Shown here piece by piece: positions 3,876 through 27,718 of a stretch of 27,718 bases of DNA. The DNA lies in the IMG/VR virus record IMGVR_UViG_3300021963_000529, positions 1-27,718 of that record. One strand, given 5' to 3'. The translations under genes were made by a program, and so were the position numbers. The notes beneath the pieces are model-generated. The model did not search any database. It saw nothing but the letters and a program-made list of their open reading frames with translations, and had not been told where the DNA came from. Numbering within the stretch: position 1 is the first letter of the stretch; each line of letters starts with the position of its first letter. The DNA is from a virus.

Positions 3876-5783
3876 ATGAAGACTACGACAAAGAAAAAAG
3901 CGAGCGCTATTAAAATAAAAGCGGACGCGCCCAAGAAAAGTCTCGCCGTGGCCGTAGCTAGCACGACTGAACCGGCGCTTATCGACGGAATGACAGAGTC
4001 TCTAGCCACCACGCGCAGAAACGTCGCGGGTTCAATAGAACGAACCGACCGATTCACGAATATCGAAGACGGACTGACTCCTTTTAACACGGGAGGCCGG
4101 TATGGAGAAAAGTCTTCCGGCCCTGACGCGAGAGACGCGATTGAGCTTTGTCAGAAAGCTTATTACAATTTCAGTATTTTCAGGAATATTATCGACCTAA
4201 TGACAGAATTTTCAATCTCGAAGCTGTCTTTTAAAAATGGTAGCGCTAAATCCCGAGAGTTTTTCGCCGCATACTACAAAAAGATTAATATTTGGGACTT
4301 GCAGGACAAGTTCTATCGCGAGTATTACCGTGGTGGAAACGTCTTCTTATATAGATACTCCTCTCGACTAAATGATGCCGATGTTAAAAAGATAACTCAG
4401 GTCTTCGGTGGCGTTTGTGCTAAAGCCTCCAAAGTCTCTTTGCCGGTAAGATATGTAGTTTTGAACCCCGTGGATATACGCATTGAATCGACGGTTAACT
4501 TCGGTACGCCATGTTACTATAAGACATTAAATAATTACGAAATAGAAAGACTAAGGCACCCGATAACTGACGAAGACAAAGAGCTGCTAGAAGCGCTCCC
4601 TAAGACAGTCCAAGAGCAGATAGCAAAAAGCGGCCCATTAAATATTCTTCTGCCTTTGCTGCCAGAAAACGCTATCGCCATCTTCTATAAAAAACAAGAC
4701 TATGAACCGTTTGCTATTCCAATGGGTTTCCCGGCTTTAGAGGATATCAACGCGAAGTGCGAAATGAAGCGCATAGACATGGCCATCGCGAGAACGATGC
4801 AGCAGGCTCTGCTAGTTATCACCTCTGGAAATGAACCGGACAAGCACGGTATTAACCCAAACAATCTTACCGCTCTACAGAGACTATTTGAAAATCAGTC
4901 TGTCAGCAGAGTCCTTGTAGCCGATTATACGACTAAGGCCGAATTCGTCATTCCGCAGATAGCAGACCTTCTGGACCCGAAGAAGTACGAAGTGCTGGAG
5001 AGAGACATTAATATCGGTCTCAATAACATCTTCGCTGGCGGAGAGAAGTTCGCCAATCAAACGGCCAAGATGGAAGTTTTTATCGCGAGACTAAAGCAAG
5101 GAAGAGAATCCTTCATTAACAACTTTTTATATCCAGAAGTCAAGAAAATCTCTAAAGAATTGGGCTTTAAGGTATACCCAGACCCAGTATTTGAAGAAAT
5201 CGACCTCAAAGACGATGGCGTGTATGCCAAAATCTACTCACACTTGGCGGAAATCGGCGTGCTTACTCCAGAAGAGACAATTAAAGCTATCGAGACGAAC
5301 ACTCTTCCCGACGCAGAATCCTCAATTGAATCTCAGAAGACATTAAAATCTCTGCGCGAAAATGGTCTTTATGCGCCGATTAATACCGGGTCGCCAGCGG
5401 GAACAGACCCAGCGGGCCGACCGGTGGGAACACCTGCTCCAAAAACCGTGTCTCCTATCGCTGGAAGTATGGAGGCTTATAGCTGCTCTAAACTACGGGG
5501 AAATGTCGTGCTGGCTCAAGAGGTAGAAAACGGAGTGGCCTGTGCTTACAAGGCAAAAATGGGAGTTACCGAACTTGGCACTAAAGAGCTGGCTGTCGCA
5601 GACCAGATATTTAAAACTATCATCGCAAATGAAGCCCCTGAAGAATGGATTTCGTCCATAGCCTTCTACCTAGATAACCCAAAAGACAGAAACAAATCTC
5701 GCGTCAACGCCGTACTTGAAATATCAGCGAAGCATGACGTGGATTTTTATATGGCGAGCTTGCTTGCGGCGAGTATTAAATAG
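3876..5783 (+). CDS. Portal protein
   Basis: A 635-residue protein that by family and position forms the dodecameric portal at the capsid vertex, through which DNA is packaged and released. The N-terminus is a basic, Ala/Lys-rich leader (about residues 1-30). A portal-like core follows, with FRNIIDLMTEFSISKLSF, then YYRGGNVFLYRYSSR, and a stretch around residues 290-400 in which a helix (MAIARTMQQALLVI) precedes a segment ending in LNNIFAGGEKFANQT, as in portal stem and wing regions. The last 100 residues, after a Pro/Gly-rich linker (near 5385-5455), form a separate small domain (SIAFYLDNPKDRNKSR) that I do not recognise. It starts six bases after the fibre stop with no clear ribosome binding site. 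Confidence rests on length, architecture and adjacency to terminase. Confidence 0.82.
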   Translation: MKTTTKKKASAIKIKADAPKKSLAVAVASTTEPALIDGMTESLATTRRNVAGSIERTDRFTNIEDGLTPFNTGGRYGEKSSGPDARDAIELCQKAYYNFSIFRNIIDLMTEFSISKLSFKNGSAKSREFFAAYYKKINIWDLQDKFYREYYRGGNVFLYRYSSRLNDADVKKITQVFGGVCAKASKVSLPVRYVVLNPVDIRIESTVNFGTPCYYKTLNNYEIERLRHPITDEDKELLEALPKTVQEQIAKSGPLNILLPLLPENAIAIFYKKQDYEPFAIPMGFPALEDINAKCEMKRIDMAIARTMQQALLVITSGNEPDKHGINPNNLTALQRLFENQSVSRVLVADYTTKAEFVIPQIADLLDPKKYEVLERDINIGLNNIFAGGEKFANQTAKMEVFIARLKQGRESFINNFLYPEVKKISKELGFKVYPDPVFEEIDLKDDGVYAKIYSHLAEIGVLTPEETIKAIETNTLPDAESSIESQKTLKSLRENGLYAPINTGSPAGTDPAGRPVGTPAPKTVSPIAGSMEAYSCSKLRGNVVLAQEVENGVACAYKAKMGVTELGTKELAVADQIFKTIIANEAPEEWISSIAFYLDNPKDRNKSRVNAVLEISAKHDVDFYMASLLAASIK

Positions 5784-6412: not shown

Positions 6413-7015
6413 ATGACTGCTATTTGTACGCTATGCAAAACAGAGAAGGACGAGGCGGATTTCGTCAAATCTAAAAAGAGTAAAAATGGACTATATTCAT
6501 GGTGCAAATCCTGCTCCTATAAGAAAAAGAGAATATGGATAGCGAATAATCCAGAGAAACACAACTCCTACCAGTCTGCCTATGATAAGAAACATTATAT
6601 ATTGAATCAAGACAAGATAAAACAAAACGTAAAGAATTGGGCGCAAAAGAATCCAGAACGGGTATCGCAACTCGCCGCTAAATCGAAGCAAAGAAGAAAA
6701 CAACGACTTTCTTCCGTAGAGAATGAAAGGCTTTCCTCCAAGGACCATAAGGAGCTTTTAAGCAAATTAGGGTTATTCGACGGACAGTATTTTTATTGTT
6801 ACGTCACGGGCTTAAAGCTGGATAAAAAAGACCTATCGTTCGACCACGTTGTCCCGTTATCTAAAGGCGGACCCAACAAAAGGGAAAACCTTTTGCCGAT
6901 GAATTTAAAACTGAATCTGTCGAAACAGGACAAATTACTATCCGAATGGGAATTTAGTGGAAAAAAGATGTCCGATTTGGTAATTGCTGATTTAAAACCT
7001 ACTCTTTCAGTGTAA
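6413..7015 (+). CDS. HNH homing endonuclease
   Basis: A 200-residue free-standing HNH nuclease. The N-terminus has a zinc-binding-type CTLC pair (Cys5, Cys8) and CKSC pair (Cys31, Cys34), followed by a long basic helical region with NPEK/NPER repeats typical of phage HNH DNA-binding arms. The nuclease motif is near residues 140-171: FDHVVPLSKGG gives the Asp-His (144-145), RENLLPMN gives Asn159, and NLSK gives Asn168 and Lys171. The usual CxxC pair flanking the HNH core is absent; the equivalent site reads YCYVTG. It sits exactly between two virion genes (stop three bases upstream, next start 24 bases downstream), is more A/T- and Lys-rich than its neighbours, and is likely a homing gene that spreads between related phages. 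The nuclease family is clear; homing is inferred. Confidence 0.87.
   Translation: MTAICTLCKTEKDEADFVKSKKSKNGLYSWCKSCSYKKKRIWIANNPEKHNSYQSAYDKKHYILNQDKIKQNVKNWAQKNPERVSQLAAKSKQRRKQRLSSVENERLSSKDHKELLSKLGLFDGQYFYCYVTGLKLDKKDLSFDHVVPLSKGGPNKRENLLPMNLKLNLSKQDKLLSEWEFSGKKMSDLVIADLKPTLSV
7009..7015 (+). promoter_or_regulatory. AGTGTAA leader motif
   Basis: AGTGTAA preceded by TTTC, ending 23 bases before the start at 7039. It overlaps the HNH stop codon. The leader that follows contains TAGGAACTGG (7027-7036), a decamer also found in the tape measure leader at 25341-25350. Confidence 0.35.
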
Positions 7016-19013: not shown

Positions 19014-19456
19014 TGAGCCTACTTCTTTCAAGTACAGAAATAGCAGGATGTACCGGCATAATGAGAAGCATGTTTGATACTTTTTGCTTACCTATCACGG
19101 TGCATAAAACGCCGCTCAAATTAGCGTGTTCCATTGCTTCTGGCGACGTGACTTTCGGATACTCCAATAGCTATCCGATAGACAACTTCACTTATACCCC
19201 CGTAAACAGCGTCTTCTCTGGAAGGTTTTACTCTCCAAAACTTGGTGACAATCCGCTAGAAAAGAACATTGATGTCCATCACGCTAGTTCTAGCACGCAA
19301 GTTAAGGTCCACGGTGATTGCTACGACTATATTACAAACGGAACAACAGAAAAGATATCAATAGCAGGGTCTGACTGGAAAATAAAAGGCCAAGGAACAA
19401 AAAAATATTTTCTTACGGACGAGTATTATGTCTTTGACCTAGAACAGGTGCAATAA
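19013..19456 (+). CDS. Head closure (stopper) protein, probable
   Basis: A 147-residue beta-rich protein: FCLPITVHKTPLK, then FGYSNSYPIDNFTYTPV, then GDCYDYIT and SDWKIKGQGTKKYFLTDEYY. The TDEYYVFDLEQV ending after a beta-barrel-like body fits small stopper proteins that close the connector after packaging. Both ends overlap neighbours as TAATG, so translation of the three connector genes is coupled. No catalytic motif is present. The role comes from gene order and fold type, not from a recognised signature. Confidence 0.5.
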   Translation: MSLLLSSTEIAGCTGIMRSMFDTFCLPITVHKTPLKLACSIASGDVTFGYSNSYPIDNFTYTPVNSVFSGRFYSPKLGDNPLEKNIDVHHASSSTQVKVHGDCYDYITNGTTEKISIAGSDWKIKGQGTKKYFLTDEYYVFDLEQVQ

Positions 19457-20049
19457 TGGGCGCTGTAATAGATTTCGACTCTATTGACGAGACGGTCTTT
19501 GCCAGTAGAGATTACAAATTGAAAAGTCTTGAGCTTTCTCAGAAGTACGTTAAACAGGTTCTGTCGCATGAGAAAAATCAATTATTGGAAAAGTTCGAGA
19601 CTCATCCAGTAACTCGCGAATTGGAGGCTGGGCCGGGTTCTAAGAACATCTCTGGCACGTTAGGTGGCTATGGAGATTTATATTCCTTTATCGGTTTCCA
19701 TCAGGGGACTAATCCTACTGAAAAATTAAGAGAACTTCTGGAGTCCATTAACGTCCTTGAGCCGAAATACGTAAATAATAAATGGGTCTTCGTTATTCCG
19801 GTGCCAGACAGGAAAGCTATTATTCTAGCTACTCCTTTCCCGTGGCAACAGGGGGCCGGGTGGGCGATAGAAATAGAAAAAGGGATGTCTGGTTTTGGGC
19901 ATTTCTTATCTATTAACCAGTTGGGGCGTTCTGAGGGCGGTATTGAGATAAAAGGGGTAGTCAGGGCGACTTCAGAATCAGTAAGAACGCGATATATAAC
20001 TCACATGCTTGAGCATTTTCGTGTTAATTTCGAGAGGACAAGGCTGTAG
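19456..20049 (+). CDS. Tail-completion / head-tail joining protein, probable
   Basis: A 197-residue protein. The N-terminal 60 residues are helical and charged (YVKQVLSHEKNQLLEKFETH). Then GGYGDLYSFIGFHQG is followed by a beta segment with ATPFPWQQGAGWAIEIEKG and a C-terminal helix TRYITHMLEHFRVNF. This arrangement resembles HK97 gp10-like tail completion proteins. It overlaps the preceding gene by one base and is the last of the coupled set. The TnpB gene begins 14 bases after its stop, with the reading frame intact, so the insertion did not disrupt it. Confidence 0.5.
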   Translation: MGAVIDFDSIDETVFASRDYKLKSLELSQKYVKQVLSHEKNQLLEKFETHPVTRELEAGPGSKNISGTLGGYGDLYSFIGFHQGTNPTEKLRELLESINVLEPKYVNNKWVFVIPVPDRKAIILATPFPWQQGAGWAIEIEKGMSGFGHFLSINQLGRSEGGIEIKGVVRATSESVRTRYITHMLEHFRVNFERTRL

Positions 20050-20063
20050 ATGATTGCTATCCG

Positions 20064-21323
20064 ATGATTCGTTCTTCTAAAATCCATTTCAGAGAGGTTG
20101 TTAATGCCGAGAAGGCGGCTAAATTAGACTCTTTTCTGGCCGAATACCGCAGGGTTGCTAAGTTCTACCTAGATGAACTTTGGGACAATGGAGTTGAATA
20201 TAATGGAAAAGTCTTTTCAATTAAAGACGATAGGCTAAATGTGCCTCAGTTTTTATCTAAAACAGCAACGCCATTTATTGCAACAAGCCTTTCTGCTAGA
20301 GCCTTAAAATGTTGTCTCACACAAATACTTGGAGTTATAAGCTCAGTTACGCAGAAAAGGAGAACCGCCTTATGGATTAAGGATAAAAGAGAAGCAAACG
20401 GACAGTTTCTATATCCGTCTTTACTAGCCACTCTTGAATTAAAAATTACTAAACCTTATATCACTGACTTAAAGCCAGAGCTAAATTCAATATGCACAGA
20501 TTTTAAAGAAGTGTCAGGAAAATTCGACGGTTTTTTATCTCTGAAATCCATTGGCAAATCTTTTGGCAAAATTAAAATCCCCATTAGATATCACCGTCAG
20601 CTTTTGAAGTGGAAAAGCGGAAAACTTAAAAACTCATTCCTTATTTCCGAAACATACGTAGTATTTCGCTATGAACTTATTCGTCCTCTGAAGACAAAAG
20701 GAACCATTGTAGGAGCAGACACGGGATTGAAATCCGTCGTGACTTTAAGTGACGGTTCTTTTACTCCGAAACAAGATTTACATGGTCATTCGCTAGAGTC
20801 AATTATAAACAAGCTCTCTCGAAAGAAAAGGGGCAGTGCGGCCTTCAGAAGAGTACAAGAGCACCGTAAGAATTTTATTCATTGGTCGATTAACCAACTT
20901 AATCTACGAGATATAAAACAGATTAATTTAGAGAACGTGGTAAACATTAATTTTGGCAAGCGAGCGTCTCGTAAGATGCAGGCTTGGACGAATACGGTCA
21001 TCCGAGACAAGGTGATAAGTTTAGCAGAAGAACGAGAGGTTCTCGTGGTTCTGAAAGATTCCGCCTATAAAAGTCAAAGATGCTCGGAGTGCGGACTAGT
21101 AAAGAAATCGAATAGGAAAGGAGAGACTTATACCTGCAAACATTGTGGAAGCATTATGAATGCAGATTTAAATGCGGCGAGAAATCACGCAGTAGAACTC
21201 CCCGAAATCCCACTCGATGTATTTAAAAGTAAGAAAAATCTGAAGGGTTTCTTTTGGAACTTGTCTGGTTTTGAAGACTTTGGGACGGAATTCACAGTTC
21301 CGGCTTCTGAAAAGAAAGGGTAG
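20064..21323 (+). CDS. tnpB: TnpB-like RNA-guided nuclease (IS605 OrfB family)
   Basis: A 419-residue protein of the TnpB/Cas12-ancestor family, whose active members cut DNA guided by an omega RNA. The RuvC-type catalytic residues look complete: Asp219 in GADTGLKS, Glu290 in INLENV, and Asp368 in NADLNAARN. A zinc finger precedes the last (Cys340, Cys343, Cys358, Cys361, in CSECG and CKHCG). The N-terminal 200 residues fit the helical and wedge-like part, with weaker similarity. About 45 residues follow the final aspartate. There is no adjacent TnpA transposase and no clear element ends, and only 14 and 51 bases separate it from intact flanking genes. It therefore looks like a stabilised or homing-type gene rather than a fresh insertion sequence. 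A weak hairpin lies near its 3' end (21286-21302). Confidence 0.9.
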   Translation: MIRSSKIHFREVVNAEKAAKLDSFLAEYRRVAKFYLDELWDNGVEYNGKVFSIKDDRLNVPQFLSKTATPFIATSLSARALKCCLTQILGVISSVTQKRRTALWIKDKREANGQFLYPSLLATLELKITKPYITDLKPELNSICTDFKEVSGKFDGFLSLKSIGKSFGKIKIPIRYHRQLLKWKSGKLKNSFLISETYVVFRYELIRPLKTKGTIVGADTGLKSVVTLSDGSFTPKQDLHGHSLESIINKLSRKKRGSAAFRRVQEHRKNFIHWSINQLNLRDIKQINLENVVNINFGKRASRKMQAWTNTVIRDKVISLAEEREVLVVLKDSAYKSQRCSECGLVKKSNRKGETYTCKHCGSIMNADLNAARNHAVELPEIPLDVFKSKKNLKGFFWNLSGFEDFGTEFTVPASEKKG

Positions 21324-21347
21324 ATATTCACATATCGAACTTCTAAC

Positions 21348-21352
21348 TGTAA
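21348..21352 (+). promoter_or_regulatory. TGTAA leader motif variant
   Basis: TGTAA within TTCTAACTGTAAACT, 22 bases before the start at 21375. It is a weaker match to the AGTGTAA motif. It could restart transcription after the TnpB gene. Confidence 0.25.
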
Positions 21353-21374
21353 ACTTTGAGAGAGTCCACATATA

Positions 21375-22217
21375 ATGAAACGTCAACATGACCATCAAGT
21401 ACTGTCGAGTCTGGCTTTATTCCTAGATAATAGGATACTAACCAGCGGAGAGGCCTTTTTTAATCATCAGTCTCGTTTTTATCCGGCTACCAGTCAATAT
21501 TCTGGTCGCCGCACGTATTCCTTGCCGTTTAAGCAATTGGTTAATGATTCGTCTGTGTCCGGCGCGACAGTGATGACCTCTGTCCAGATTTCGGGTGTTC
21601 CCGTAACTGTTGGGTCAAGCGGCCTTCTGTCGATAAATCACTATCAGGGGACTGTAGATTTCGATACGTCGTATCCCAACTATCCAGCTTCGTCTATGAG
21701 TGGCTCGTTTGCCGTAAAAGAAATCAACATCTATACAACCGCAGACAATGACGAAAAACTGCTCTTTTATACCAAGTTCCAAAGAAACCCACAAACTCCC
21801 CAGAGCGTAACTGGGCTGGGAACTAGCGTATATACATTACCGGCAATTTTTCTAAAGAAGCGAGGCGGCGAAAATAAACCGTTTTCCTTGGGTTCTGTTG
21901 ATGAGTCTGTTATTGATATTCGAGCCTTTGTTATTACTGATAACGATTACCTGAGAGACGGCGTAGTTTCTATATTAAAAGACACTCATTATCGACGGTT
22001 TTCATTCATATCGCCTCCATTTGACGCCGAGCAAGCGTATGTCGGGGTAGATTACAACTATTCTGGATTGTCATCGGCGGCGTCCGGCACCTATTTTGGC
22101 CCACTAATCCAAGGAGTCCTAGAGTCTCGCCTTTCTAGGAACTCCAGCGACGGGAGCTTAGACGACTTAAAGATAACGGTGGTGGATTTTGAGATTTCCC
22201 AAGTTAGGTCTCACTAA
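21375..22217 (+). CDS. Virion protein of unknown role
   Basis: A 280-residue beta-rich protein, Ser/Tyr/Gly/Val-rich. It has a stretch LSINHYQGTVDFDTSYPNYP (about residues 80-105), FLKKRGGENKPFSLGSVDES, and an ending VDFEISQV after a SLDDLKITV strand. No signal peptide, membrane segment or nuclease motif is seen. It lies between the tail-completion protein (before the TnpB insertion) and the tail tube, so it is probably part of the neck, tail terminator or distal tail. Similar length and placement occur for tail terminator or neck proteins, but I cannot assign it to one. Confidence 0.55.
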   Translation: MKRQHDHQVLSSLALFLDNRILTSGEAFFNHQSRFYPATSQYSGRRTYSLPFKQLVNDSSVSGATVMTSVQISGVPVTVGSSGLLSINHYQGTVDFDTSYPNYPASSMSGSFAVKEINIYTTADNDEKLLFYTKFQRNPQTPQSVTGLGTSVYTLPAIFLKKRGGENKPFSLGSVDESVIDIRAFVITDNDYLRDGVVSILKDTHYRRFSFISPPFDAEQAYVGVDYNYSGLSSAASGTYFGPLIQGVLESRLSRNSSDGSLDDLKITVVDFEISQVRSH

Positions 22218-25356: not shown

Positions 25357-27718
25357 ATGTCTCAAATCGTATTAACAGTTGGCGGGAATACGGCAGCGTT
25401 ATCACAGTCTATTAACGCGGCTGTTAATCGACCGTGGAATATTGGGCAACTTAACACTCGCGGCTTCTCTCAACCTCTGGGCAAAATTACCGGACAGGCG
25501 TCCGAATTCTCTAAATCCCTCGAAGCCGCTAATGCCCGTGTTATCGCGTTCGGAGCGTCTGCCTTGGCGATTGCTCTTGTAAAGACGGCTCTTGATGGAG
25601 TCATTGGCTCGACTGTCCAAGTAGAGGCTAGCATGGCTAGCATTAATAGCGTTTTAGGCCTAACTAATAGCCAATTAGGCAAATTCTCTAGCGACCTTTT
25701 CCTAGCTGCCTCACAGGCTGGCGTTTCCTTCAAAGACGCCGCTCTAGCAGCAATGGAGTTCTCGCGTCAGGGTTTATCTGCCGAGGAGACGATTAAAAGA
25801 ACTTCTTCAGCCTTAATCCTCGCTCGCCTGTCTGGAATGAGCTTTACCGCCGCAGTAACGGATATTACCGCCGCGCTTAACTCGTTTAATAAAGAGGCCC
25901 TGACATCGGAAGACATCGTTGGGAGGATGGCTGCTGTTGATGCCCGTTTCGCCGTTTCTTCTACCGATTTGGCAGAGGGTATTAAACGTGTCGGCGCTAG
26001 CGCTTCCGACGCTAATGTCACGTTTAATCAAATGTTGGCGCTTATTACGAGCGTTCAGCAGAGTACTGCACGAGGCGGAGCTGTTATTGGTAACGCGTTC
26101 AAAACGATTTTCACAAGGATGGGTCGCCCCGAAGTTCTCCAGCAGCTAGAGAGCCTTGGAATCCAGACAAGAACCGCTACTGGAGAAATTCGCCCATTAG
26201 TTGATATCTTAAAGAATCTCGCTCAAAAATATGACCACCTCGGCCCCGCCCAAAGGTCAATGACGGCAGAGCTGTTAGGCGGTGTTTATCAGATTAACAT
26301 TTTAAAAGCAGCAATGCGCGATTTGGGCCAAGGTACTTCCGTCTTTGACGGGGCGCTTAAAGCCGCTGGTCAGAGTTCTGGAGAAGCAAATCGTCGTATA
26401 GAAGAGCTAAACAACACGGTTTCTGGCAAATTGACTCAAACGATGAACTCCTTTATAGGAATGTCATCAAAATTCGGCAGTCTGACAATCGCTCCAGTGA
26501 TGAAATCGGGTCTGGATTTCGGAAAATGGGCGGCGGAAAATCTATCGGAAAAAGTTGACGGAGATGGAATCGGTGCTAAAATCGGAGAGGGCCTACTAAG
26601 AGGAATCGGAAATATCCTTAGCGGACCCGGCGTACAAATCGCGACGTTTGCTATCTTGAAATTGTTCGGAAGATTGGTTCAATTCGGAACTGTAGCTACT
26701 AGAGAGTTTTTCCAAATAACTACTGAAGCTAGCAGGTTACAAGCTATCGAACAGTCCACTGCCGCCTTTTTGTCTAAACAGCCAGAGCTATTAGAAGAAA
26801 TCAGGTCGGGAAGACTGACCATCATAGACGCGGCGCGTAGATACACTCACGAGCTAGCAAGTCAAAACGAGGCGACCCTAGTCCTAAAGAGAAACTCATT
26901 AGATTTGGCCAAAGTACTTCAGACTCCACCAAGGGGTATCGGCGGACAGCCGATATTCCCACAAGTCAGGGCGACTATGACGACTGTTGCTCATGGATGG
27001 GTTCCTAATTTCAATATAATGAAGCACGAAGAAGCCGAGGCTCGCTCTCTGGGGGCTTCTAGTGGGGTTCGCGCCCATACTTCTCGTGGCACGATTGGTG
27101 GCCAGCGTTTCGTGATGAACAATCAAGAAACAGAGATTCCTAATTTTGGAAGGAATGGAGACTCTGCGGTGATTCCGCATTATGCTGGAGGTAATCTTCC
27201 CGATAACAAATACCGGTACCATGTTTTAGATAGGGACTTCTTAACGATGCACGGAAACCGTAATGATTTCAATAAAATCATCAAACACGTAACAGACAGC
27301 AAACTAGTTGAAGAACTAGTGACCGGCGCTGCTGGTGTGGGAAAAACGACGTATATTAAAAGCAAATATCCTAATGCTTCATTTATAGAAAGTGTGACAG
27401 AGGCATTGAGATTTAATAAAGACCACGATAAAGTCATCGTTACGCGAGCCTTAGCAAATCCATTCGAGCAGCATAATGAAAAAGAATTCAATGTAGCTCG
27501 CGCTATTACTCACATTACCGCCTCTTCGGACGTAATTAAGCAATTCCGAACGAAAAGAGCAGAAGACGAAAACTCTCCTACGGCTTTTGGTCGCAAGGGC
27601 TACACCCACGGACCTACCAGCGGCGTTTTCCTCGAAGCGGCTTTAAATAAATACTGGAAAGACAAGGCAACCATAAAAGTAATAGAGCGGTCTGGTAACA
27701 GTTTCTCCATGAGAGACA
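25357..27718 (+). CDS. Tape measure protein with P-loop domain, 3'-partial
   Basis: Open to the right edge, 787 complete codons from ATG at 25357. Residues about 20-330 resemble the TP901-type tape measure core, including helices with FSRQGLSAEETIKRTSSALI, GRMAAVDARFAVSSTDLAEG and AFKTIFTRMGRPEVLQQL, and a coiled-coil-like region follows. A predicted hydrophobic segment is near residue 430 (IATFAILKLFGRLV). Residues 547-615 form a PNF-type linker: GWVPNF at 547-552, EIPNFG at 593-598, AVIPHYAGG at 604-612. Next comes a P-loop domain with GAAGVGKT (Walker A, residues 657-664; 27325-27348) and a later TAFGRKG segment, like nucleotide kinases or zeta-toxin-type proteins. Tape measures set tail length and, in some phages, are ejected into the cell with DNA. 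The cargo idea is inference; the P-loop is clear. Confidence 0.85.
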   Translation, partial: MSQIVLTVGGNTAALSQSINAAVNRPWNIGQLNTRGFSQPLGKITGQASEFSKSLEAANARVIAFGASALAIALVKTALDGVIGSTVQVEASMASINSVLGLTNSQLGKFSSDLFLAASQAGVSFKDAALAAMEFSRQGLSAEETIKRTSSALILARLSGMSFTAAVTDITAALNSFNKEALTSEDIVGRMAAVDARFAVSSTDLAEGIKRVGASASDANVTFNQMLALITSVQQSTARGGAVIGNAFKTIFTRMGRPEVLQQLESLGIQTRTATGEIRPLVDILKNLAQKYDHLGPAQRSMTAELLGGVYQINILKAAMRDLGQGTSVFDGALKAAGQSSGEANRRIEELNNTVSGKLTQTMNSFIGMSSKFGSLTIAPVMKSGLDFGKWAAENLSEKVDGDGIGAKIGEGLLRGIGNILSGPGVQIATFAILKLFGRLVQFGTVATREFFQITTEASRLQAIEQSTAAFLSKQPELLEEIRSGRLTIIDAARRYTHELASQNEATLVLKRNSLDLAKVLQTPPRGIGGQPIFPQVRATMTTVAHGWVPNFNIMKHEEAEARSLGASSGVRAHTSRGTIGGQRFVMNNQETEIPNFGRNGDSAVIPHYAGGNLPDNKYRYHVLDRDFLTMHGNRNDFNKIIKHVTDSKLVEELVTGAAGVGKTTYIKSKYPNASFIESVTEALRFNKDHDKVIVTRALANPFEQHNEKEFNVARAITHITASSDVIKQFRTKRAEDENSPTAFGRKGYTHGPTSGVFLEAALNKYWKDKATIKVIERSGNSFSMRD
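27187..27718 (+). other. P-loop kinase-like cargo domain within tape measure
   Basis: From the end of the PNF linker (near residue 611) onwards the sequence changes from helical tape-measure character to a mixed alpha/beta domain. VLDRDFLTM comes first, then Walker A GAAGVGKTT, followed by a beta strand KVIVTRALANP. A segment HITASSDVIKQFRTKRAE with two arginines in an R-T-K-R arrangement, and TAFGRKG, resemble the lid and substrate region of small-molecule or peptidoglycan-precursor kinases. The domain is unfinished at the window edge. A toxin or metabolite kinase activity is a hypothesis, not shown. Confidence 0.6.

What the first reader, a model, noticed from the sequence alone, without database searches (positions are those of the whole stretch)
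20064..21323. Complete TnpB without TnpA between tail genes
The protein keeps the Asp219/Glu290/Asp368 catalytic set and the four-cysteine zinc finger, yet there is no TnpA and no recognisable element ends, and both neighbours are intact with gaps of 14 and 51 bases. This looks like a phage-adapted RNA-guided nuclease, perhaps acting as a homing endonuclease, on rival phages, or to keep its own locus. The guide RNA, if present, would have to overlap the gene's 3' end or the next gene's start.
Basis: partly seen in the sequence, partly recalled or inferred. Interest (0 to 1): 0.62.

Follow-up and report, generated by a model that had tools for sequence, protein, structure and literature searches.

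The report
Phage TnpB with recoded gene end
A phage carries an RNA-guided DNA-cutting gene, descended from a known type of jumping gene, inserted exactly inside the end of a neighbouring phage gene; the insert supplies a rewritten copy of that gene end, so it looks like a natural self-copying element that spares its host gene and escapes its own cut.

Summary
In detail: an intact TnpB (20064-21323) with D219/E290/D368 and a four-cysteine zinc finger, and no TnpA. The claim of "no recognisable ends" is wrong. Thirteen relatives (12 in viral contigs) show this is an IS607-lineage TnpB; its sister (L002, 51% identical) still has the serine recombinase TnpA. The right end is kept at 21350. It overlaps an omega-RNA whose hairpin and guide-adjacent pseudoknot covary across nine loci. 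Syntenic relative L003 has an empty site: the insert (20025-21350) sits inside the last codons of the upstream gene. The window therefore holds that gene end twice. Left is a rewritten copy (VNFERTRL*) that completes the gene; right is the native end, 15/15 bases identical to L003, which is also the predicted guide. The guide matches L003 at 14/16 bases (first 13 exact) beside the family's GTST flank; the rewritten copy matches only 9/16, with mismatches at 1, 4 and 7. TnpA and the left end are gone. Best reading: an RNA-guided homing element that cuts TnpB-free relatives and is copied in by recombination, carrying a rescue gene end. Closest parallels: fungal mitochondrial homing elements and synthetic home-and-rescue drives. 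Cutting and homing are inferred, not shown.

The parts
19456..20049 (+). upstream (target) gene, 197 aa, function unknown, in the tail-gene cluster; its last 9 codons (20023-20049) lie across/inside the insert
   Evidence: ORF; 72% aa identity to L003:5411-6001; no Pfam/PHROG match; AlphaFold model of low confidence, not used
20021..20024 (+). left junction / inferred TAM and recombination core GTGT
   Evidence: same position holds GTGT in empty site L003; GTGT or GTCT precedes the left end in L002, L008, L012, L013, L015, L016
20023..20049 (+). recoded replacement 3' end of the upstream gene: GTT AAT TTC GAG AGG ACA AGG CTG TAG (VNFERTRL*)
   Evidence: L003 has GTA AAC TTT GAG AGA ATA CGC TTA TAA; 1 of 7 identical residues uses the same codon (gene-wide 0.52, neighbouring genes 0.52-0.56; P about 0.045)
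20064..21323 (+). tnpB, 419 aa, RuvC triad D219/E290/D368, zinc finger C340/C343/C358/C361
21236..21275 (+). omega-RNA stem-loop (P_a) inside the tnpB 3' coding end
   Evidence: single-sequence folds of 10 loci give a hairpin at GGUUUCUWUUGGAA; approximate bounds
21282..21306 (+). omega-RNA hairpin P_b with 11-nt loop
   Evidence: 52 of 54 pairs kept in 9 loci, up to 5 pair types per pair, none of 50000 shuffles as good
21294..21298 (+). pseudoknot 5' strand ACAGT in the P_b loop, pairs with 21346-21350
   Evidence: 44 of 45 pairs; variable pair is C-G, G-C or U-A; permutation p = 0.0014
21323..21336 (+). omega-RNA hairpin P_c (GATAT-TCAC-ATATC), variable in sequence among relatives
   Evidence: by eye in the sequence; hairpin at this place in the relatives; RNAfold alone does not choose it for the window
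21345..21350 (+). element right end AACTGT = pseudoknot 3' strand and last scaffold bases
   Evidence: similarity between unrelated insertion sites stops here
21349..21375 (+). displaced native 3' end of the upstream gene, still overlapping the next start codon (TAATG)
   Evidence: 15/15 bases then TAATG identical to L003; overlapping stop/start in L003, L004, L005
21351..21370 (+). predicted guide AAACTTTGAGAGAGTCCACA
   Evidence: position after the right end as in known TnpB systems; 14/16 match to L003 empty site, 9/16 to recoded left copy
21375..22217 (+). downstream gene, 280 aa, function unknown, in the tail-gene cluster
   Evidence: 90% aa identity to L003:6001-6843

Best explanation
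An IS607-family transposon-derived TnpB has become a site-specific, RNA-guided homing element of a phage. TnpB and its omega-RNA (overlapping the tnpB 3' end) carry a guide copied from the insertion site. In a mixed infection the complex would cut a related phage lacking the insert at GTGT|AAACTTTGAGAGA, in the last codons of the upstream gene. Recombination repair from the TnpB-bearing genome would then copy in the whole cassette, including a codon-changed gene end that keeps the upstream gene whole and no longer matches the guide. Shown by sequence: IS607 ancestry, loss of TnpA and left end, kept right end and omega-RNA fold, intact catalytic residues, exact insertion point, rebuilt gene end, and guide match to the empty allele but not to the own left copy. 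Inferred: expression, cutting, TAM, and spread by homing.
For: Empty site in syntenic relative L003, also in more distant L004/L005. Gene end present twice, the left copy recoded and the right copy native. Sister TnpB L002 in an IS607 element with TnpA (tree support 0.983). Right end and pseudoknotted omega-RNA conserved by covariation, matching the published IS607/ISDra2 pattern (PMC10711439). Catalytic residues invariant. Guide 14/16 to L003 with GTGT beside it; own left copy 9/16 with mismatches at 1, 4, 7, 13-16. Same architecture in fungal mitochondrial homing elements (PMC3630166). TnpB shown elsewhere to act as a gene drive in plasmids (PMC11870625).
Against: Only one insertion of this kind and only one close empty relative are known, so spread by homing is not seen. 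The recoding argument rests on 7 codons (P about 0.045 alone). Target conservation beyond L003 is not shown: no other homologous target in IMG/VR, and L004/L005 lack the site. The window's own omega-RNA region is not unusually stable by folding energy (z = -0.88). The TAM is inferred from flanks, not measured.
Confidence: 0.6

Rival explanations
1. A non-autonomous IS607 remnant: the element once transposed with TnpA, later lost it and the left end, and now simply persists. The rebuilt gene end arose by a chance duplication or recombination that repaired the interrupted gene, with no homing function.
For: Lone or broken TnpBs occur in the same family: L012 without TnpA, L019 frameshifted. TnpA pseudogenes are common in IS607 loci (PMC11061315).
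Against: TnpB reading frame, catalytic residues, omega-RNA pairs, right end and guide are all intact while TnpA is gone without trace. The left copy is changed in nearly every codon but hardly in protein.
Confidence: 0.22
2. A weapon between co-infecting phages: TnpB cuts related phages lacking the insert and so lowers their yield, without being copied into them (superinfection exclusion).
For: Same nuclease, guide and target evidence as for homing.
Against: The compact insert with its own replacement gene end is what a copied cassette needs; exclusion alone needs neither that nor insertion at the target.
Confidence: 0.12
3. Assembly chimera in a metagenomic contig.
For: The window is a 27.7-kb viral contig seen once; raw reads could not be examined.
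Against: The right junction falls exactly at the family's right end, and the left junction at GTGT with an intact, in-frame rebuilt gene end; flanks on both sides match one relative in order.
Confidence: 0.03
4. An RNA-guided regulator (TldR-like), binding without cutting, that controls the neighbouring late genes.
For: TldRs are phage-encoded TnpB derivatives (PMC13418256, listed).
Against: The full RuvC triad and zinc finger are kept, and the guide template lies within its own locus next to CTGT rather than GTGT.
Confidence: 0.03

Closest known systems
IS607 family elements with TnpB (ISXfa1, IS607, ISFba1)
   Same: TnpB of the IS607 lineage by its sister with a serine recombinase; right end, guide-adjacent pseudoknot with the apical loop of a stem-loop, core bases in the scaffold (PMC10711439, PMC6188088)
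   Different: no TnpA, no left end; core GT/CT rather than GG; scaffold overlaps the tnpB 3' coding end and does not match RAGATH-18 or any Rfam family
Fungal mitochondrial mobile ORF elements (atp6 in Allomyces; atp6, atp9, cox2, nad3 in Glomus; PMC3630166)
   Same: insert carries a DNA-divergent, protein-conserved C-terminal end that completes the host gene, then an endonuclease gene, then the displaced native end
   Different: protein-only LAGLIDADG or GIY-YIG nucleases in mitochondria; here an RNA-guided TnpB in a phage
Free-standing phage homing endonucleases (T4 seg and mob genes; PMC2988022)
   Same: endonuclease gene between phage genes in a gene cluster; intronless homing
   Different: those insert between genes, with cut sites set by protein recognition and apart from the insertion point; here the insertion point, guide and target are the same site and a gene end is rebuilt
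Synthetic home-and-rescue gene drives (HomeR; PMC7968924)
   Same: RNA-guided cut in the 3' coding end of a gene and a recoded rescue carried by the drive
   Different: engineered Cas9 drive in flies
TnpB gene drive of IS elements in plasmids (PMC11870625)
   Same: TnpB cuts copies lacking the element and favours its spread
   Different: elements with TnpA, plasmid targets, no rescue of a gene

Membership tests
TnpB RNA-guided nuclease | RuvC D/E/D residues and four-cysteine zinc finger | tested here: met
   invariant in 8 members; PF07282 above cut-off; fold matches Cas12f/TnpB structures
TnpB RNA-guided nuclease | omega-RNA overlapping the right end with guide-adjacent pseudoknot | tested here: met
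   P_b 52/54 and pseudoknot 44/45 pairs in 9 loci
TnpB RNA-guided nuclease | RNA-guided DNA cleavage | not testable with these tools
   needs biochemistry
IS607 transposon | serine recombinase TnpA | tested here: not met
   no match in the window; present in L002, L008, L013, L015, L016
IS607 transposon | recognisable right end | tested here: met
   AACTNT end at 21350 shared with relatives
IS607 transposon | recognisable left end | tested here: not met
   ACATTT-type left end of relatives replaced by coding sequence
IS607 transposon | precise insertion at a short core present at both junctions | tested here: met
   TGT at both junctions and in the L003 empty site
Homing element | empty allele in a relative containing the nuclease target at the insertion point | tested here: met
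   L003, 14/16 guide match
Homing element | own allele is not a target | tested here: met
   left copy 9/16 with seed mismatches; right copy lacks the G of GTGT; sequence prediction only
Homing element | biased inheritance in mixed infection | not testable with these tools
   needs co-infection
TldR (nuclease-dead TnpB regulator) | degenerate RuvC site | tested here: not met
   triad intact
RAGATH-18 reRNA-guided IS607 TnpB | RAGATH-18 RNA next to tnpB | tested here: not met
   no Rfam match in the window or within 1.5 kb of the gene at E up to 1

The most novel reading that the evidence does not exclude
A natural RNA-guided home-and-rescue drive: a TnpB element that gave up its transposase and left end, kept nuclease, guide RNA and right end, and replaced the left end with a recoded copy of the target gene's end, so that it spreads among phages by guided cutting and recombination alone.
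Probability: 0.5. Interest if true: 0.78.

Novelty: new variant of a known kind. Interest (0 to 1): 0.64.

Why it matters
Why TnpB persists without a transposase is an open question. This locus gives a concrete answer that can be tested: guide, target, protected own allele and an empty relative are all defined to the base. It would link TnpB to phage homing endonucleases and would be a natural counterpart of synthetic rescue drives. In the papers searched here no RNA-guided element of this design was found; that is not proof of absence.

Tried and rejected
Rfam search of the window at gathering level and of eight loci at E up to 1: no omega-RNA family. MAFFT alignment of whole 3' regions misaligned the variable P_c loop, so pairs were counted on anchored segments (in one search L012 was anchored wrongly and was corrected). 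Single-sequence folding energy is not significant for the window itself. Search for further targets in IMG/VR with two patterns gave only L003 plus two chance hits, L025 and L027. Scan with the upstream gene alone found nothing; a scan with the downstream protein alignment returned only the same three relatives. INPHARED has no relative of three phage proteins of the window and only distant TnpBs, at most 32% identical over at least a third of the protein. AlphaFold model of the upstream protein was too poor to use (pLDDT 49). L010's right end does not fit the pseudoknot and was left out of the counts. L008 shows an 11-base repeat at both ends (TCTATTAAACA), but no empty allele was sought.

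Full report
The gene. The ORF at 20064-21323 codes for 419 aa. It passes the Pfam cut-off for the TnpB/Cas12f zinc-finger domain, matches Cas12f and TnpB chains in the PDB by sequence, and an AlphaFold model of fair confidence (pLDDT 79) matches Cas12f, ISDra2 TnpB and ISFba1 TnpB structures. D219, E290, D368 and the four cysteines are invariant in eight family members. The window is the whole record, a linear viral contig of 27718 bases, with phage structural genes and a tape measure gene at 25357.

The family. Scans of IMG/VR and GTDB genomes gave 13 related loci: twelve in viral contigs of about 7 to 370 kb and one in a Bacteroidales MAG. Several are identical copies in different contigs. 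Five distinct elements carry an IS607-type serine recombinase TnpA directly upstream of or overlapping tnpB (L002, L008, L013, L015, L016). The window TnpB is sister to L002 (support 0.983), which has TnpA. The window has no trace of TnpA, so it was most simply lost.

Right end and guide RNA. Window and L002 sit in unrelated sequence, yet DNA similarity runs past the tnpB stop and ends abruptly after TTCTAACTGT. The same AACTNT-type end occurs in nine loci. Upstream of it, inside the tnpB coding end, lies a hairpin (P_b) with loop AGYTTANAGTC. Its stem keeps 52 of 54 pairs with up to five pair types per position, and none of 50000 shuffles did as well. The loop bases ANAGT pair with the terminal ACTNT (44 of 45; the variable pair is C-G, G-C or U-A; permutation p 0.0014). 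This is the published plan of ISXfa1 and ISDra2 guide RNAs, where five bases next to the guide pair with the apical loop of a stem-loop (PMC10711439). Shuffles do not correct for relatedness, so the p-values are guides only; the repeated C-G/G-C/U-A exchange is the stronger point. The predicted guide is 21351-21370.

The insertion site. L003, a 108-kb contig collinear with the window at 72-98% aa identity for most shared genes, has no detectable TnpB relative anywhere in the contig. In L003 the upstream gene's stop overlaps the next start (TAATG), as in L004 and L005. The L003 site reads CCGTGT|AAACTTTGAGAGAATACGCTTATAATG. The window reads TCGTGT|TAATTTCGAGAGGACAAGGCTGTAG...tnpB...TTCTAACTGT|AAACTTTGAGAGAGTCCACATATAATG. 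So 20025-21350 is an insert inside the last codons of the upstream gene. The native end is displaced to the right and still abuts the next gene; the insert brings its own end, coding VNFERTRL where L003 has VNFERIRL.

The recoding. In the left copy only 1 of 7 identical residues uses the L003 codon, against 52-56% in the surrounding genes (P about 0.045), while the displaced right copy is identical to L003 for 15 bases. The left ends of relatives read GTCT or GTGT followed by an ACATTT-type sequence; the window keeps GTGT but has gene-end sequence in place of the left end. The same pattern, with a foreign DNA-divergent but protein-conserved C-terminus, then an endonuclease, then the native end, is described for fungal mitochondrial homing elements (PMC3630166). 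Published synthetic home-and-rescue drives also target the 3' coding end and carry a recoded rescue (PMC7968924).

Targeting. Guide against the L003 empty site: positions 1-13 and 15 match (14/16), with GTGT beside it. Guide against the recoded left copy: 9/16, mismatches at 1, 4, 7 and 13-16. The guide's own template is preceded by CTGT, not GTGT. No other good match lies in the window or in about 38 kb of the L003 contig. Flanks of six other insertions give GTST as the likely TAM, with left and right core bases equal (GT with GT, CT with CT) except L013, whose right core is CG, in line with IS607 recombination over two identical bases (PMC6188088). The left end of L015 was placed with the help of its right core and is less certain than the others; the decayed L019 does not fit (left ATCT, right ACTGT).

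Mechanism. Shown by sequence: ancestry, exact insertion, loss of TnpA and left end, conserved nuclease residues, conserved guide RNA fold, rebuilt gene end, and a guide that fits the empty allele and not the rebuilt one. Inferred: expression with the late genes, cutting, repair from the filled genome, spread. Confidence in an IS607-derived insertion with a rebuilt gene end is about 0.93; in homing as its main role about 0.6.

Limits. One filled locus and one close empty relative are known; TAM and guide start are not measured; reads were not available; the window's own RNA region is not unusually stable by energy alone (z = -0.88).

Noticed in passing
window 6413-7015: Gene similar to endonuclease VII/HNH nucleases (PHROG 1035, 9e-27), the lowest GC of the window's genes (0.385, next to tnpB 0.390); possibly a second selfish endonuclease. 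The L003 contig ends before its syntenic place.
   Followed up: no
L012:2674-4320: Relative in a 332-kb viral contig keeps both IS607-type ends but has a 73-aa ORF that looks like a ribbon-helix-helix protein (2774-2995) in place of TnpA.
   Followed up: partly
L019:1863-6794: Frame-broken TnpB inserted at the very 3' end of a gene that looks like thymidylate synthase (the left end appears to supply its stop codon), just upstream of a ribonucleotide-reductase-like gene that looks intein-containing.
   Followed up: partly
L008 and L015 (same 368-kb contig): Two different members of this TnpB/TnpA family occur in one jumbo phage contig, and each is found identically in a second contig from another metagenome.
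   Followed up: no
L008:2363-2373 and 4271-4281: An 11-base repeat TCTATTAAACA at both element ends, unexpected for IS607, which makes no target duplication; part of it may be the left end itself.
   Followed up: no
window, upstream of most ORFs: Few clear Shine-Dalgarno motifs before start codons; with one relative in a Bacteroidales MAG this hints at a Bacteroidota host, not tested.
   Followed up: no
window 20050-20067: A five-codon mini-ORF (MIAIR) whose stop overlaps the tnpB start (ATGA), possibly for translational coupling.
   Followed up: no
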